Source: Desulfotomaculum nigrificans DSM 574 (GTDB taxonomy: Bacteria; Bacillota; Desulfotomaculia; Desulfotomaculales; Desulfotomaculaceae). From it: 64,000 nt of DNA. Where the stretch lies: NCBI RefSeq assembly GCF_000189755.2, contig NZ_KI912183.1:2631755-2695754 (forward strand). The letters run 5' to 3'. Shown here one piece after another: positions 2,140-11,361 of the stretch. Numbering within the stretch: position 1 is the first letter of the stretch; every line of letters begins with the position of its first letter. A program made the translations under genes and the position numbers. The notes below the pieces were generated by a model that saw only the letters and a list, made by a program, of their open reading frames with translations, was not told the origin of the DNA and did not search any database.

Positions 2140-2290
2140 ACAAACACCTCGTTTTAAGGGCTTTGTTTTTGGTATTACCATACCACGGTTCTTCTGATTT
2201 GGCAAAGGACGTTTCGATAAAAAACAATAAAAAACATGACAAAAGTTTCTTGCCTAATAAACGGTTTGTGATATAATAAAGGAAAATTGA

Positions 2291-2337
2291 ACGGCGATGG
2301 AGTTCGCCTAACGCTGCCAAGCTGATGACTCCTACCT
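2291..2337 (+). promoter_or_regulatory. Fluoride riboswitch (crcB RNA motif)
   Basis: The plus strand shows the hallmark of this RNA: GGCGATGGAGTTCGCC, then TAACGCTGCC, then GCTGATGACTCCTACC, matching the conserved aptamer with its P1 helix and the 3' UGAUGNCUCCUACC strand. The reverse strand does not match. An intrinsic terminator overlaps its 3' end, as expected for fluoride-controlled attenuation. It points away from the usp-crcB operon and into a broken MFS gene. Confidence 0.88.
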
Positions 2338-2369
2338 TTGTATGTACATGGGTAGGGGTTTTTTATTTT
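2331..2369 (+). terminator. Riboswitch expression-platform terminator
   Basis: CCTACC pairs with GGTAGG across a loop of about 14 bases, followed by GGTTTTTTATTTT. The 5' arm is the last conserved strand of the fluoride aptamer, so aptamer folding and terminator folding are mutually exclusive. This is the classic layout for gene activation by fluoride. Confidence 0.8.
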
Positions 2370-2371
2370 CG

Positions 2372-2660
2372 GTAAACCTGGCCATCGCCGGTTACAGCCT
2401 GTCGGCGGTGGCCAAGATTCCCATTATCTTTGCCGTTTCTTGGGCCTGCACCGGGCCATGGACACCCTGGGAGCGGTGATCGGGGTGGCCCTGGCCTACC
2501 TGTTTTTCACCTCCTACCACGGCGACTACCGGACCGTCTTCTTCTGGTCCCTGGTACCGGCCATCATCGGGGTGGGTATTTTATTCGGGGTGCGGGAAAA
2601 GGAGCCCAAGGGCCTGCCCAAGAAAGTCCTGTCTCTCAAATGGTCGTCCCTGCTTTTGGG
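2372..2660 (+). pseudogene. MFS transporter pseudogene under the fluoride riboswitch
   Basis: Two out-of-frame pieces of one MFS permease are visible. The first (from about 2375) reads NLAIAGYSLSAVAKIPIIFA. The second (from about 2437) reads FLGLHRAMDTLGAVIGVALA and continues to GVREKEPKGLPKK near 2630. In intact relatives these blocks are separated by roughly 50 residues including an RxxDRxGKGxR loop, which is absent. The N-terminal helices and the C-terminal six helices are also missing, and the frame changes around 2430. The gene is therefore dead through at least three deletions. Immediately upstream lies the riboswitch, so a fluoride-induced exporter may once have stood here. Confidence 0.75.
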
Positions 2661-2761
2661 TAAAGTAGCTTGTTTTACAGATGAAGAACCCACTGATTTA
2701 AGGATTAATCTTTTCGGCGAAAGAAAAAATGAGTTTAGGAAAAACTAAAGGAGCAGGGCCT

Positions 2762-3151
2762 ATGGCGGAACTGGAGTCCATTAAGAAACTAAAAAACTGG
2801 GCCAAAAATTTTAAGTCAGAAGTTTATACACTTTACCTGGCTTACAGGGACCCGAGGGTTCCTTGGTATGCCAAGCTGTTTATCGCCTGTGTGGTGGGTT
2901 ATGCCTTTAGCCCCATCGATTTAATTCCTGACTTTATCCCGGTTCTGGGATATCTGGATGATCTTGTCTTAATTCCCCTGGGGGTTACCCTAGCCTTGAA
3001 GATGATTCCTGAACCGGTCTTGGAAGAGGCCAGGAAAAAAGCGATTGATTTCAGACCGGGTAAACCAAAAAGCTGGGGTGCAGCTATTATTATCATAGCG
3101 GTCTGGGTTTGCCTGCTGGTCATGGTAACTGTTTTGGTGATCCAGCAATGA
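2762..3151 (+). CDS. YkvA-family (DUF1232) membrane protein
   Basis: A 129-residue protein with the DUF1232 signature YAFSPIDLIPDFIPVLGYLD at residues 47-66, and a C-terminal transmembrane helix (about 105-127). The family is widespread in bacteria and of unknown function; the motif forms a membrane-associated hairpin. I chose ATG 2762 because AAAGGAG lies 8 bases upstream; an earlier ATG at 2729 lacks a ribosome site. It is followed after 36 bases by a PAP2 phosphatase gene on the same strand. Confidence 0.85.
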   Translation: MAELESIKKLKNWAKNFKSEVYTLYLAYRDPRVPWYAKLFIACVVGYAFSPIDLIPDFIPVLGYLDDLVLIPLGVTLALKMIPEPVLEEARKKAIDFRPGKPKSWGAAIIIIAVWVCLLVMVTVLVIQQ

Positions 3152-3187
3152 GTTACATAATTTCCAGTAATAGAAGGTGCTTTAGTC

Positions 3188-3886
3188 ATGAGTATAGATA
3201 AATTATCGAAACCCTTAGTAAGGTTTGTTGCGTCTTCTGTGGTTTTTCTCTCTGTGTTTACCGGGATATTTATAAAGCTTGCCGATGAGCTGAGGGAACA
3301 GGATTTATACCGGTTTGACTATCCAATTATTCAGCTGGTTCAATCGTATATCGACCCGCAGTTAACTGGTGTGATGAAATTTTTTACTTTTATCGGTTCG
3401 GGCAAAGTCATTGTGGTCTTGCTTATTATATCGATGTTCCTAATGGTTCGCCGGAAGAAAAATTGGGAAGCCGTTTTTTTATTAACCGCAGCATCAGGTG
3501 GTGCCCTTTTTAATCTGCTGCTTAAATGGCACTTTCATCGAATCAGGCCAAGTATTCATCCCTTGATTAAAGAAACAGGATACAGTTTTCCCAGCGGCCA
3601 TTCGATGGAGGCAATCATTTTTTACGGGATGTTAGGATACTTTCTTTGTTTATTTTTTGAATCAAAGTTTCTGCAACGTCTCAGCGTAATGGGAGCGACC
3701 GGAATAATTCTTCTCGTTGGCTTAAGCCGTATTTACCTGGGGGTTCATTATCCCAGCGATGTGTTGGCGGCCTACGCCGCCGGTGGGGTCTGGCTGATTA
3801 TCTGTTTAACAGGGTTGAAAATCATTGTAGAAGTACGGCAGCGGAACATCCGGCCCGGAGGGGGATATAGAAAAAATAATAATTGA
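3188..3886 (+). CDS. PAP2-family membrane phosphatase
   Basis: A 232-residue, six-helix membrane protein of the type 2 phosphatidic acid phosphatase superfamily. All three active-site motifs are present: KWHFHRIRP (KxxxxxxRP) near residue 118, PSGHS near 138, and SRIYLGVHYPSD (SRxxxxxHxxxD) near 186. These form the vanadate-type catalytic site that removes phosphate from lipid phosphates or pyrophosphates at the outer membrane face. The substrate could be phosphatidylglycerophosphate or undecaprenyl pyrophosphate, and the sequence does not decide this. It probably shares a transcript with the YkvA gene. Confidence 0.9.
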   Translation: MSIDKLSKPLVRFVASSVVFLSVFTGIFIKLADELREQDLYRFDYPIIQLVQSYIDPQLTGVMKFFTFIGSGKVIVVLLIISMFLMVRRKKNWEAVFLLTAASGGALFNLLLKWHFHRIRPSIHPLIKETGYSFPSGHSMEAIIFYGMLGYFLCLFFESKFLQRLSVMGATGIILLVGLSRIYLGVHYPSDVLAAYAAGGVWLIICLTGLKIIVEVRQRNIRPGGGYRKNNN

Positions 3887-3931
3887 ATGGTAGGTCCAAT
3901 GTCATGTTGTTTTTGATTTTGTTTTTGGTAA

Positions 3932-4264
3932 CCAATTTTAAAAATATTAGCAGACGAAACACGTTTACAAATTATCCAACTGCTGTTAACCCATGATTTC
4001 TGTGTCGGAGCCCTGGCCAAAAACCTGGGCTTATCGGAAGCCGCTGTCTCCCAGCACATCCAAATTTTACGTAAAGGGGGGGTATTAAAGGGGGAAAAAC
4101 GAGGCTATTGGACCCATTATTCAGTGGAGAGAGAAGTGCTGCACCAGGTAGCTAGGGCGCTGCAAGAACTGGCCAACCGACCAACTGCCCACGAGGTGGT
4201 TTGCCGGCGGGGATCTGTCATTGCCACTAATTTAGATGCAGGGGGGGAAGAAACAGATGTGTAA
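3932..4264 (+). pseudogene. ArsR-family regulator lacking a start codon
   Basis: The open frame reads ILADETRLQIIQLLLTHDFC, then ALAKNLGLSEAAVSQHIQIL, KGEKRGYWTHYSV and so on to a stop at 4262-4264. This is a full ArsR winged-helix domain with the recognition helix SEAAVSQHIQ. A stop codon lies at 3929-3931, and no ATG, GTG or TTG occurs between it and the conserved domain; the only candidate is a rare ATT at 3935 with no ribosome site. The usual first residues of the family are missing, so the gene seems 5'-truncated. It is followed directly by a Cys-rich peptide and a split permease, an arrangement typical of ArsR-controlled permease operons. Confidence 0.72.
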
Positions 4265-4381
4265 ATGTACATGTCAGCAACCAGATAAGCTAAAGGAAAA
4301 CCGGGACAGTGCAGCCCGGAACAGATAAAAGAATGTCACGGTAGCGAAGAAAGCCATTCCTGTGAAAGGGAAAATGAATAG
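4257..4381 (+). pseudogene. Frameshifted Cys-rich small protein (SPEQIKECHG type)
   Basis: ATG 4257 overlaps the arsR stop and opens MCKCTCQQPDKLKENRD, then runs to a stop at 4326 after only 23 codons. Adding one base after the Asp codon (at the GACAGTGCAGC stretch, about 4308) restores a 41-residue reading: D-S-C-SPEQIKECHG, then SEESHSCERENE and a TAG at 4379-4381. The restored protein has six cysteines in CxCxC, C and C patterns, and looks like a metal-binding peptide. From memory, similar SPEQIKECHG peptides occur in ArsR/permease operons, but that needs a search. The base count (125, one short of a multiple of three) fits a single deletion or a sequencing error. Confidence 0.6.
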
Positions 4382-4392
4382 CGGTATTACTT

Positions 4393-4421
4393 GGGGGCAG
4401 ATACGACTGTTCACTGCCCCC
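4393..4421 (+). terminator. Hairpin between arsR region and permease genes
   Basis: GGGGGCAG pairs perfectly with CTGCCCCC across a 13-base loop and is followed by TTGTTACT. It is GC-rich with only a short U-tract, so it may attenuate rather than fully end transcription into the permease genes. Confidence 0.5.
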
Positions 4422-4467: not shown

Positions 4468-4944
4468 TTGAAATTTACTGCTGCATTGTTTATTTTTACT
4501 TTTGTCCTGTTAGGCCTATCCTGGAGCAAGGACCGGCAGAAAACCCAAAAGGCCTTAAAGATAGCCTGGAAATCTTTTAATAACCTGTTGCCTACCATGT
4601 TGGGTATCATTGGTTTAATGGGCTTTGCCCTGACTATCCTGCCGCCGGAAGTTATAAAAACCGCCTTTGGGGATCAAAGCATCCTGGGTCTCATTCTGAT
4701 TTCCCTGGTGGGGTCGGTTACCCTGATGCCCGCCTTTGTGGCCTTCCCCCTGGCGGGGTCGTTGTTAAAAGCCGGGGCCGGTGTCACCGCAGTGGCCTGC
4801 TTTTTTACCACCCTGATGATGGTGGGCATTATCACCGCGCCGATGGAAATGAAATATTTTGGCCGGGCCTTTACTGTTAGCCGCAATATTCTTGGCTTTG
4901 GCTTTGCCATTGTTATTGGGCTTTTGATGGGGGTGCTGGTGTAA
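4468..4944 (+). CDS. ArsP/DUF318-type permease, N-terminal-half subunit
   Basis: A 158-residue membrane protein with about four helices. The segment LGLILISLVGSVTLMPAFVA, followed by FPLAGSLLKAGAG, matches the permease repeat of the DUF318 (ArsP-like) family. It starts at a TTG with AAGGGGTG 7 bases upstream. The next gene overlaps its stop codon (ATGA-type junction at 4944) and supplies the other half, so the pair would work as one two-chain permease. ArsP proteins export organoarsenicals, but this family is broad and the cargo here is unknown. It sits in an operon with the decayed arsR. Confidence 0.78.
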   Translation: MKFTAALFIFTFVLLGLSWSKDRQKTQKALKIAWKSFNNLLPTMLGIIGLMGFALTILPPEVIKTAFGDQSILGLILISLVGSVTLMPAFVAFPLAGSLLKAGAGVTAVACFFTTLMMVGIITAPMEMKYFGRAFTVSRNILGFGFAIVIGLLMGVLV

Positions 4945-5480
4945 TGAAGGTGTTGAAAAAGTATGCCTGGTTTTTGCTGGCCATCCTGCTGGACCTGGGG
5001 TTGCATACCGTGGACAGCGGCAAAGGGGCGGTGGCTGTACAAACTAGCTTTAATTATCTTCTCGAAATGCTGATGTTCATCCCACCCATCATGGTGTTGG
5101 TGGGCTTGCTGGATGTCTGGGTACCCCGCCGCATAGTAGAAAAAAATGTGGGCAAAGGCGCTGGCCTCAAGGGTATCCTTATTTCCATTTTGGTAGGTTC
5201 TGCCGCAGCGGGGCCGCTGTACGCCGGTTTCCCGGTGGCGGATGCTATGCTGAAAAAGGGCTGTCGTCTGGCCAATGCAGTGATTTTTCTTTGTACCTGG
5301 GCCACTATTAAAATTCCTATGATCATGATGGAAGTGCGTTTTGTAGGCTGGAAATTTGCCCTGGTGCGCCTGGCACTGACCCTGCCTTCTATTATCATCA
5401 CCGGTTATCTGGTGGAATGGTTTGTGGAAAAAAACAGACAACCGGAGCCAACCAGTAAAGATGCAGCTATGAAGGCTTAG
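4944..5480 (+). CDS. ArsP/DUF318-type permease, C-terminal-half subunit
   Basis: A 178-residue membrane protein translationally coupled to the upstream subunit. It repeats the family pattern in LKGILISILVGSAAAGPLYA followed by GFPVADAMLKKGC, where the Gly/Pro-rich loop parallels the LVGSVTLMPAFVAFPLAG loop of its partner. The two chains therefore look like internally homologous halves of one transporter. A Lys-rich tail ends the protein. No dedicated metal-binding motif is visible, and the neighbouring Cys-rich peptide may have played that part. Confidence 0.78.
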   Translation: MKVLKKYAWFLLAILLDLGLHTVDSGKGAVAVQTSFNYLLEMLMFIPPIMVLVGLLDVWVPRRIVEKNVGKGAGLKGILISILVGSAAAGPLYAGFPVADAMLKKGCRLANAVIFLCTWATIKIPMIMMEVRFVGWKFALVRLALTLPSIIITGYLVEWFVEKNRQPEPTSKDAAMKA

Positions 5481-9132: not shown

Positions 9133-10040
9133 CTATTGTCTAACCCCCATGGAGCAAAAAGAAATGAGAAAAGCAATAAACTCCTCCGTCGCCGGGGATT
9201 GAAATTTTCCTTTGTGATAAATTAGATAAAACTGACGAAATAAAGATAAATCTTTTATTTTAACAGGGACAAGGGTTCCCAGCTTTAATTCCTTTTGTAC
9301 CGCCCATTTGGAAATAATCGTTGTTCCAAATCCCGCTTCCACAGCCGCCTTTACTGCTTCTGTACTTCCTAATTCCATTACCACATTCAAGAAAGACGGG
9401 TCTACTCCCTCCTCTTCCAGTCGCTCTTCAGTAATCCTCCTGGTTCCGGATCCTTGCTCCCTTAGAACCAAGGGTAAGGCTACAAGTTCATCTAATGAAA
9501 TAACCTGTTGTTGAGCCAGTGGATGGTCCTTTGGTATCACAACAATGAGTTCGTCATGCAGGAAAGGTTTCACAGTCAATTCCAAATTTTCCACCCGGTT
9601 TGCCACCAGTCCCAAATCTAGCTCTTGCTTCACTACCATACTCACGACATGTTCTGTGTTTGTCACCTGGAGTAAGGCTTTTACCTGGGGATGTTGTTCA
9701 TTAAATGCCCCCAGTATTTTTGGTATAACGTATTCCCCTAACGTAAAACTTGCCCCCAGTGATAATGGCCCCTGGATACTGCCGGTAAATCTTGCGATAT
9801 CTTTTTCTGCCGCATCGATTAAGGATAATATCTTGTCCACATATTGATACAAGATTCGGCCAGCTTCTGTAATCGTTACCTGCTGGGTGTTACGCTCGAA
9901 CAATTTGGTGCCAAAATGGTCCTCCAAGGACTTAATGTGCATGCTGACTGCCGGTTGAGAAATAAAAAGGGCCTGTGCAGCCCCTGAAAAACTTTTTTGT
10001 CTGCCACTGTCTTAAAAATCCGGAATTGGTACAAACTCAA
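9133..10040 (-). pseudogene. LysR-family regulator with one frameshift
   Basis: Starting at TTG 10040 (AGGAGG 8 bases upstream) the frame reads LSLYQFRIFKTVADKK, then shifts. One extra base in the six-A run at 9993-9998 gives SFSGAAQALFISQPAVSMHI and joins smoothly to the frame used from 9942 down to 9133. The restored protein is about 302 residues: an N-terminal winged HTH and a LysR substrate domain with VIPKDHPLAQQQ and REQGSGTRR segments, like CysB/CbbR/YeiE relatives. It is codirectional with the downstream-adjacent gene remnants and lies just after a YeiH-type exporter gene, which such regulators often control. As read, no functional DNA-binding domain would be made. Confidence 0.8.
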
Positions 10041-10052
10041 ATACGATTCCTC

Positions 10053-11083
10053 CTAAAAACTAATTATGCGGATGGCTAAATAACCAGCAATTGAAATAAT
10101 AACAGAACCAATTATTCCAATAAGAAATGCCTTTTGTCCCATTCGTTTAAACATTTTTAAATGGACGCTAAGTCCCATACCTGCCATAGCTACAGTCAAA
10201 ATTATAGCGCTGGCCTGCAACATAAGTGAAGCAAGTTTTTTATCTATTATACCAACAGTATTAAGACAACTCATAGCAATAAAACCAAAGATAAACCAGG
10301 GAATTGTAATCTTATTTATTCCACTCTTTTCTTTGCTATCCTTAATATGCGAGTTGAACCAAAAACTCGTTACTAGAGTAACAGGAACAATCATTGCCAC
10401 CCGGCCAAGTTTCGTCAAGATAGCCATATCTGCAGCTGCACTGCCAAAAGGTTGAGAAGTGCTACTACATGGGCCACCTCATGAAGGGTTGCTCCGGCAA
10501 AGATCCCATATTCTTTTAAACTCAAACCTAAATAAGGTTGTAACAAAATGTAAATAATACTCCAAAAGGTTCCCAGGAGGGCAACCGTTGCTACCGATAC
10601 TACCATTTCATCCTCATCGGATTTAATCGTTGGTGCAATGGCGGCGATGGCGGCTGCACCGCAAATCCCAGTTCCTACCGCCGTTAATAAGGCAACTTTT
10701 TTCTCAACACGATATATTCTCCCCAAATAATAAATAATACCAATAGCTAAAACAATAACTGAGACATCAAGAAGAATTATTTGTGGACCCGCATTGATGA
10801 TAGCATTCAGATTAAGTCGTACACCCATTAAAATAATTCCCAGTTGTAGAAGTTTTTTACTTGCAAATCTTATACCGGCACTGGCATGAGCAGGTATTCC
10901 CATCAGGGCCCGGCATGTTATCCCCACTATAATTGCAATAATTAAGGGACCAGGTATTGATAAAAGAGGGAGACTCACGATGTTGTGAGCAAGCACCCCC
11001 ACCACTGCTGCCAGAACAAGCCCCCGGATTTCACCCCGAATTTTTCTTTGTTGGTTGCTGTTAAGTAAAGCATTTTCTTGCAT
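10053..11083 (-). pseudogene. YeiH-type (UPF0324) putative sulfate exporter, frameshifted
   Basis: The upstream frame (11083-10415) holds YeiH features such as PLLSIPGPLIIAIIVGI, GVRLNLNAI, TAVGTGICGAAAIAAIAP and GATLHEVAHVVA, then goes out of frame. One added base near 10461 continues as TSQPFGSAAADMAILTKLGR into the second frame (10427-10053). The complete protein would have about 343 residues and ten or so helices. Relatives are proposed to export sulfate or to take part in taurine and sulfoacetate degradation. I prefer ATG 11083, which is 9 bases from AGGAG, over ATG 11092. The next gene in the same direction is the frameshifted LysR gene. Confidence 0.82.
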
Positions 11084-11361
11084 AATAACCATCTCCTAAC
11101 AATTTGTTCTATTCAGAATCTCCTTTCTAAGTCTAATGGAATTATTTTTGAATTGGAAATAATTCATGATGATAAACCCTATAAAGATATGCTTATAAAC
11201 CTATCCTTCACCAGCCTGTTCAGTTCATCATCCAGGGAAGATAAAATTACCAACACGGTCGATATGAGTAAATTTTTAGTGTTAATTTTAATTGTCGCCC
11301 GGTTTAATCTTATTGACGTACCAATCATATAAAAACTAAAAGAAAAAACTCCATGCAGGCG

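What the first reader, a model, noticed from the sequence alone, without database searches (positions are those of the whole stretch)
4257..4381. Six-cysteine peptide revived by one base
The frame MCKCTCQQPDKLK... stops early, but one base restores a SPEQIKECHG peptide with CxCxC and further Cys, ending in a clean stop. It sits exactly between an ArsR gene and a split ArsP-type permease. A conserved metal-binding micro-protein of ArsR/permease operons would be a little-described partner of these exporters.
Basis: partly seen in the sequence, partly recalled or inferred. Interest (0 to 1): 0.6.

Follow-up and report, generated by a model that had tools for sequence, protein, structure and literature searches.

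The report
Broken copy of unnamed metal-binding microprotein
The stretch is a frame-damaged copy of a real, widespread but unnamed roughly 40-residue cysteine/histidine-rich protein that other bacteria encode beside an arsenic-type repressor and metal exporters; it probably binds a toxic metal, and in this genome both it and the repressor gene appear damaged.

Summary
The peptide is real. Both halves (4257-~4296 and 4307-4381) match a conserved family separately (E 3.8e-7 and 2.9e-12 in its own genome). Relatives occur in 30 other genomes, including 23 of 399 sampled from the phylum. No Pfam or NCBIfam model covers the family. Its core is C-x12/13-C-x7-CHG-x3/5-H-x-C, often preceded by CxCxC.

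It is encoded three ways: overlapping the arsR stop codon by 8 nt (as here), fused in frame to the ArsR C-terminus (as in sister species D. putei), or free-standing. Nearly every copy, fused ones included, has its own Shine-Dalgarno and start. A shared palindrome, TTAAGTnnnTACTTAA, precedes arsR or the free-standing gene. Partners are split ArsP_1-type permeases, ABC-2 exporters or chromate-type transporters.

The window copy is damaged. arsR has lost its promoter, palindrome and start at a junction with DNA 98% identical to D. putei, and the micro-ORF has one frameshift. Sequencing error cannot be excluded for the frameshift: lysR and yeiH nearby carry similar ones. Metal binding and hand-over to the exporter are inferred, not shown.

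The parts
3116..3892 (+). Segment with a PAP2 phosphatase gene (3188-3886), 98% identical to D. putei DNA; foreign to the rest of the locus
   Evidence: blastn against L095; PAP2 PF01569 1.3e-19
3886..3923 (.). 38-nt scrap matching a hisE-like gene of D. putei (95%); junction beside truncated arsR
   Evidence: the name hisE is my reading of the protein sequence
3932..4264 (+). arsR, open frame without start codon (5'-truncated), 110 codons; ends GATGTGTAA
   Evidence: homology to D. putei arsR begins at 3939
4241..4247 (+). G7 run, Shine-Dalgarno-like, 9 nt before the micro-ORF start
   Evidence: sequence, same place as AGGAGG-type sites of relatives
4257..4328 (+). micro-ORF, first half: MCKCTCQQPDKLK then out of frame, stop at 4326-4328; overlaps the arsR stop by 8 nt
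   Evidence: family match 3.8e-7; same overlap in G225 and G095
4307..4381 (+). micro-ORF, second half in the shifted frame: QCSPEQIKECHGSEESHSCERENE, stop 4379-4381
   Evidence: family match 2.9e-12, 6.2e-11
4393..4421 (+). stable hairpin between micro-ORF and permeases, also in D. putei
   Evidence: z -3.9 and -3.2; not called a terminator in the window
4468..4944 (+). first half-size ArsP_1-like permease, intact
4944..5480 (+). second half-size ArsP_1-like permease, intact
   Evidence: PF03773 5.5e-15

Best explanation
The feature is a damaged copy of a small Cys/His-rich protein that belongs to the regulon of one clade of ArsR repressors. In intact relatives ArsR is proposed to bind TTAAGTnnnTACTTAA upstream of an operon that holds arsR, the micro gene and an exporter (split ArsP_1-like permeases, an ABC-2 exporter or a chromate-type transporter). 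When a thiophilic metal or metalloid binds ArsR, the operon is derepressed. The micro protein, with a core of four Cys and two His, has its own ribosome site even where it is fused to ArsR. It most likely binds the same metal(loid) in the cytoplasm, buffering it and handing it to the exporter. Shown by sequence: family, layouts, ribosome sites, shared palindrome, neighbours, damage in the window. Inferred: that ArsR binds the palindrome, that the internal start is used, metal binding, hand-over, and which metal.
For: Family in 30 other genomes with invariant Cys/His core. ArsR fused or within 5 kb in 19 of 28 loci against about 2% expected from 3-12 PF01022 genes per genome. Palindrome with at most one mismatch 14 times in 297 kb against 0.6 in resampled sequence, 23-56 nt before the start of six free-standing micro genes. 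Exporters next to it. Shine-Dalgarno before the start also in fused genes. A degenerate copy fused to an ABC exporter ATPase in G276. Window damage.
Against: No metal-binding, expression or interaction data. Nine of 28 loci have no ArsR within 5 kb (some contigs are short). Split permeases often lack the module. Structure models are of low confidence. Exporter types are unrelated, so a direct hand-over to each would be unusual; plain buffering may be enough.
Confidence: 0.55

Rival explanations
1. It is primarily a C-terminal metal-sensing domain of ArsR. The fused form is the working one, and separate forms arose by frame changes and act in trans on ArsR.
For: In frame with ArsR in five genomes, including the sister species D. 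putei; six others overlap or abut the arsR stop; G167 and G205, of one genus, differ only in this.
Against: Free-standing genes with their own palindrome, some far from ArsR; a ribosome site and start at the module even in fused genes; a fusion to an ABC ATPase instead.
Confidence: 0.25
2. The break in the micro-ORF is a sequencing or assembly error, and the micro gene itself is intact in the organism.
For: Both halves still carry protein-level constraint; lysR and yeiH 5-6 kb away show similar single breaks in or beside short runs of one base.
Against: arsR is also 5'-truncated by a clear junction with different DNA, so decay of the neighbour is expected; another member (G117) is broken in the same manner, though in a draft genome.
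Confidence: 0.35
3. A Cys-rich leader peptide that controls the permeases by attenuation at the hairpin after it.
For: A short Cys-rich ORF directly precedes a stable hairpin in the window and in D. putei.
Against: Conservation includes non-Cys residues (P, H, G) and is at protein level. The gene also lies after the permeases (G112) or alone, and is fused to ArsR in five genomes.
Confidence: 0.05

Closest known systems
ArsR/SmtB metalloregulators (PF01022, NF033788)
   Same: The module is fused to, overlaps or neighbours such a regulator; some ArsR/SmtB proteins have Cys sensor sites in the C-terminal part (own knowledge).
   Different: The module is a separate 40-residue Cys/His unit with its own start, present without ArsR fusion in most genomes.
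Small metal-binding proteins of resistance operons (ArsD, CopZ, MerP, bacterial metallothioneins; own knowledge)
   Same: Small, rich in metal-binding residues, co-regulated with an exporter and its repressor.
   Different: No detectable similarity above cut-off to any Pfam or NCBIfam model; different motif and length.
ArsP_1 permeases (PF03773), SaoE and SO_0444 efflux families
   Same: The two window permeases and their relatives are half-size versions of this fold family.
   Different: Split into two genes; far below the SaoE and SO_0444 cut-offs, so substrate cannot be read off.

Membership tests
CHG microprotein family (defined here) | Core C-x12/13-C-x7-CHG-x3/5-H-x-C | tested here: met
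   Both window halves together carry all core residues; each half matches the profile
CHG microprotein family (defined here) | One open frame of about 40 codons | tested here: not met
   Frame changes around 4296-4306 in the window; intact in nearly all relatives
CHG microprotein family (defined here) | Linked to ArsR and exporter, palindrome upstream | tested here: inconclusive
   ArsR and permeases are adjacent, but the palindrome is missing in the window
CHG microprotein family (defined here) | Binds metal | not testable with these tools
   Needs purified protein
ArsR/SmtB regulator (PF01022) | HTH_5 domain above cut-off | tested here: met
   42.6 bits against 22
ArsR/SmtB regulator (PF01022) | Complete gene with start codon | tested here: not met
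   No start codon in frame after the upstream stop; 5' end missing
ArsP_1 permease (PF03773) | Match above the Pfam cut-off | tested here: inconclusive
   Second half 55.7 bits, met; first half 29.4 against 32.3, just below
SaoE / SO_0444 efflux transporters | NCBIfam equivalog cut-off | tested here: not met
   13-27 bits against 300-325

The most novel reading that the evidence does not exclude
An undescribed family of metallochaperone-like microproteins that moves between three gene forms (ArsR tail, overlapping ORF, free gene) by small frame changes, keeps its own ribosome site in all of them, and serves both as co-sensor for ArsR and as feeder of several unrelated exporter types.
Probability: 0.22. 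Interest if true: 0.72.

Novelty: new variant of a known kind. Interest (0 to 1): 0.52.

Why it matters
Small cysteine-rich proteins are often missed by gene finders. This one recurs in at least 30 genomes in association with a repressor, a shared palindrome and an exporter, so it may be a missing component of metal export in this phylum. Fused and overlapping versions inside one genus give a natural test of whether the module acts on the repressor or on the exporter. The damaged window copy also suggests how such a regulon comes apart: repressor control lost, exporter kept.

Tried and rejected
Chance frame restoration: rejected, both halves match separately. Programmed frameshift: rejected, intact relatives have no such break. 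First thought that the peptide is only an ArsR tail: revised after finding the 8-nt overlap in G225 and G095 and the free-standing copies with the palindrome. Two frameshifts in the window (one in the G7 run): rejected, because the GATGTGTAA overlap is found elsewhere. Plasmid and phage searches: no match. PDB: only a chance-level match. Weak Pfam CSRNP_N match to one member (E 0.0024, below cut-off): taken as chance. Structure models too uncertain to use, so no fold search was run. Papers: nothing on such a partner found in the open library. G281 (E 0.003) dropped as a likely false match.

Full report
Observation. The window (a complete 3.05-Mb genome of the genus of Desulforamulus putei) has an ATG at 4257 whose frame reads MCKCTCQQPDKLKENRDSAARNR and stops at 4326-4328. 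The frame two bases on reads QCSPEQIKECHGSEESHSCERENE and stops at 4379-4381. The two halves match a family profile separately (E 3.8e-7 and 2.9e-12 with A1; the second half 6.2e-11 with A2). A1 contained my joined reading of the window; A2 was built from 26 other sequences only and again finds 24 of 399 genomes, the window's included.

What it is. Searches in the genus, order and phylum found relatives in 30 other genomes. The alignment of 26 has an invariant or near-invariant core C-x12/13-C-x7-CHG-x3/5-H-x-C, usually with PE after the first Cys and often CxCxC in front. No Pfam-A or NCBIfam model reaches its cut-off, and plasmids, phages and the PDB give nothing.

Layouts. In D. putei (G005), G026, G426, G264 and G167 the module is the in-frame C-terminus of the ArsR protein. 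In G225, G095, G205, G362, G475 and G492 it is a separate ORF that overlaps or abuts the arsR stop (-11 to +4 nt); G225 and G095 have the same 8-nt overlap as the window (GATGTGTAA or GATGTGTGA). G167 and G205 are of one genus and differ in layout. In the rest it stands alone or at the head of an operon. Almost every copy, fused ones included, has a Shine-Dalgarno-like sequence just before its ATG or GTG, which argues that it is made as its own protein. In G276 a degenerate copy is fused to the ATPase of an ABC exporter.

Regulon. ArsR is fused to or within 5 kb of the module in 19 of 28 loci; with 3-12 PF01022 genes per genome about 2% is expected. A palindrome TTAAGTnnnTACTTAA with at most one mismatch occurs 14 times in these 297 kb, against 0.6 in Markov-resampled sequence (maximum 4 in 20 draws), at the start of arsR or of the micro gene (for three the distance was read by eye because the script took the wrong start). 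Six free-standing copies (G403, G410, G201, G482, G228, G032; G403 with two mismatches) have it 23-56 nt before their own start, and one of the two copies in G499 has an exact site as well. D. putei and G095 have good promoter hexamers beside it. That ArsR binds this site is inferred.

Partners. Split ArsP_1-like permease pairs: G005, G095, G482, G228, G112 and the window. ABC-2 exporters (DrrA/DrrB-like): G426, G225, G475, G026, G032, G163, G117, G276 and G499. Chromate-type transporters: G264 and G403 (families were assigned by clustering and checked in Pfam/NCBIfam for one member each). Split permeases also occur without the module (L020, L030-L035). So the module belongs with this ArsR clade and its exporters, not with split permeases alone.

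State in the window. The arsR frame (3932-4264) has no start codon. DNA at 3116-3892 is 98% identical to D. putei, followed by a 38-nt scrap of a hisE-like gene, and arsR homology begins at 3939 at 75% identity. The promoter, palindrome, ribosome site and first codons seen in D. putei are missing, and no exact palindrome is left in the genome. The micro-ORF carries one frame change. Yet arsR and both micro halves show protein-level constraint against D. putei (pS 0.72-0.89, pN 0.15-0.20), so any decay is recent, or the micro break is an assembly error. lysR and yeiH, 5-6 kb away, each have one similar break, which makes error a serious possibility. The permeases are intact; what drives them now is unknown.

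Mechanism. Most likely a cytoplasmic metal(loid)-binding protein that is induced with the exporter and buffers or hands on the metal, possibly also tuning ArsR. Metal identity and binding are inference from Cys/His conservation and neighbours; models of the tail and the free protein are of low confidence.

Literature. Six searches in the open library found no description of such a partner. The survey of transporters in ars operons (PMC4435449) covers ArsP, ABC and chromate-type transporters; the passages read mention no such protein. Subscription journals are not covered, so absence of a description is not certain. The survey is limited to the window's phylum.

Noticed in passing
window 9133-10040 (minus strand): A lysR-type gene is split by a one-base frame change beside an A run near 9990; both parts are open.
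   Followed up: partly
window 10100-11092 (minus strand): A yeiH-like membrane protein gene changes frame near 10405-10415 and continues in another frame.
   Followed up: partly
window 2284-2748: A fluoride riboswitch (RF01734, 50.5 bits) stands before what looks like a remnant of an MFS transporter; two crcB-like genes lie on the other strand.
   Followed up: partly
window 3116-3923: About 800 bp 98% identical to D. putei, flanked by unrelated or 75% identical DNA: looks like a recent transfer or recombination.
   Followed up: partly
L133 1406-2521: In G276 a degenerate copy of the module is fused to the N-terminus of an ABC exporter ATPase directly after arsR.
   Followed up: partly
L088 1402-1599 region (also L057): G136 carries two tandem copies of the module motif in one ORF, and a further broken pair elsewhere (L134).
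   Followed up: no
L089 5999-6151: In G117 the micro gene is also broken by one frame change, near a transposase-like gene.
   Followed up: partly
L073 and L092: In G410 and G032 the micro gene follows a siderophore-type ABC importer with a CobW/HypB-like GTPase and an unusual ABC ATPase.
   Followed up: partly
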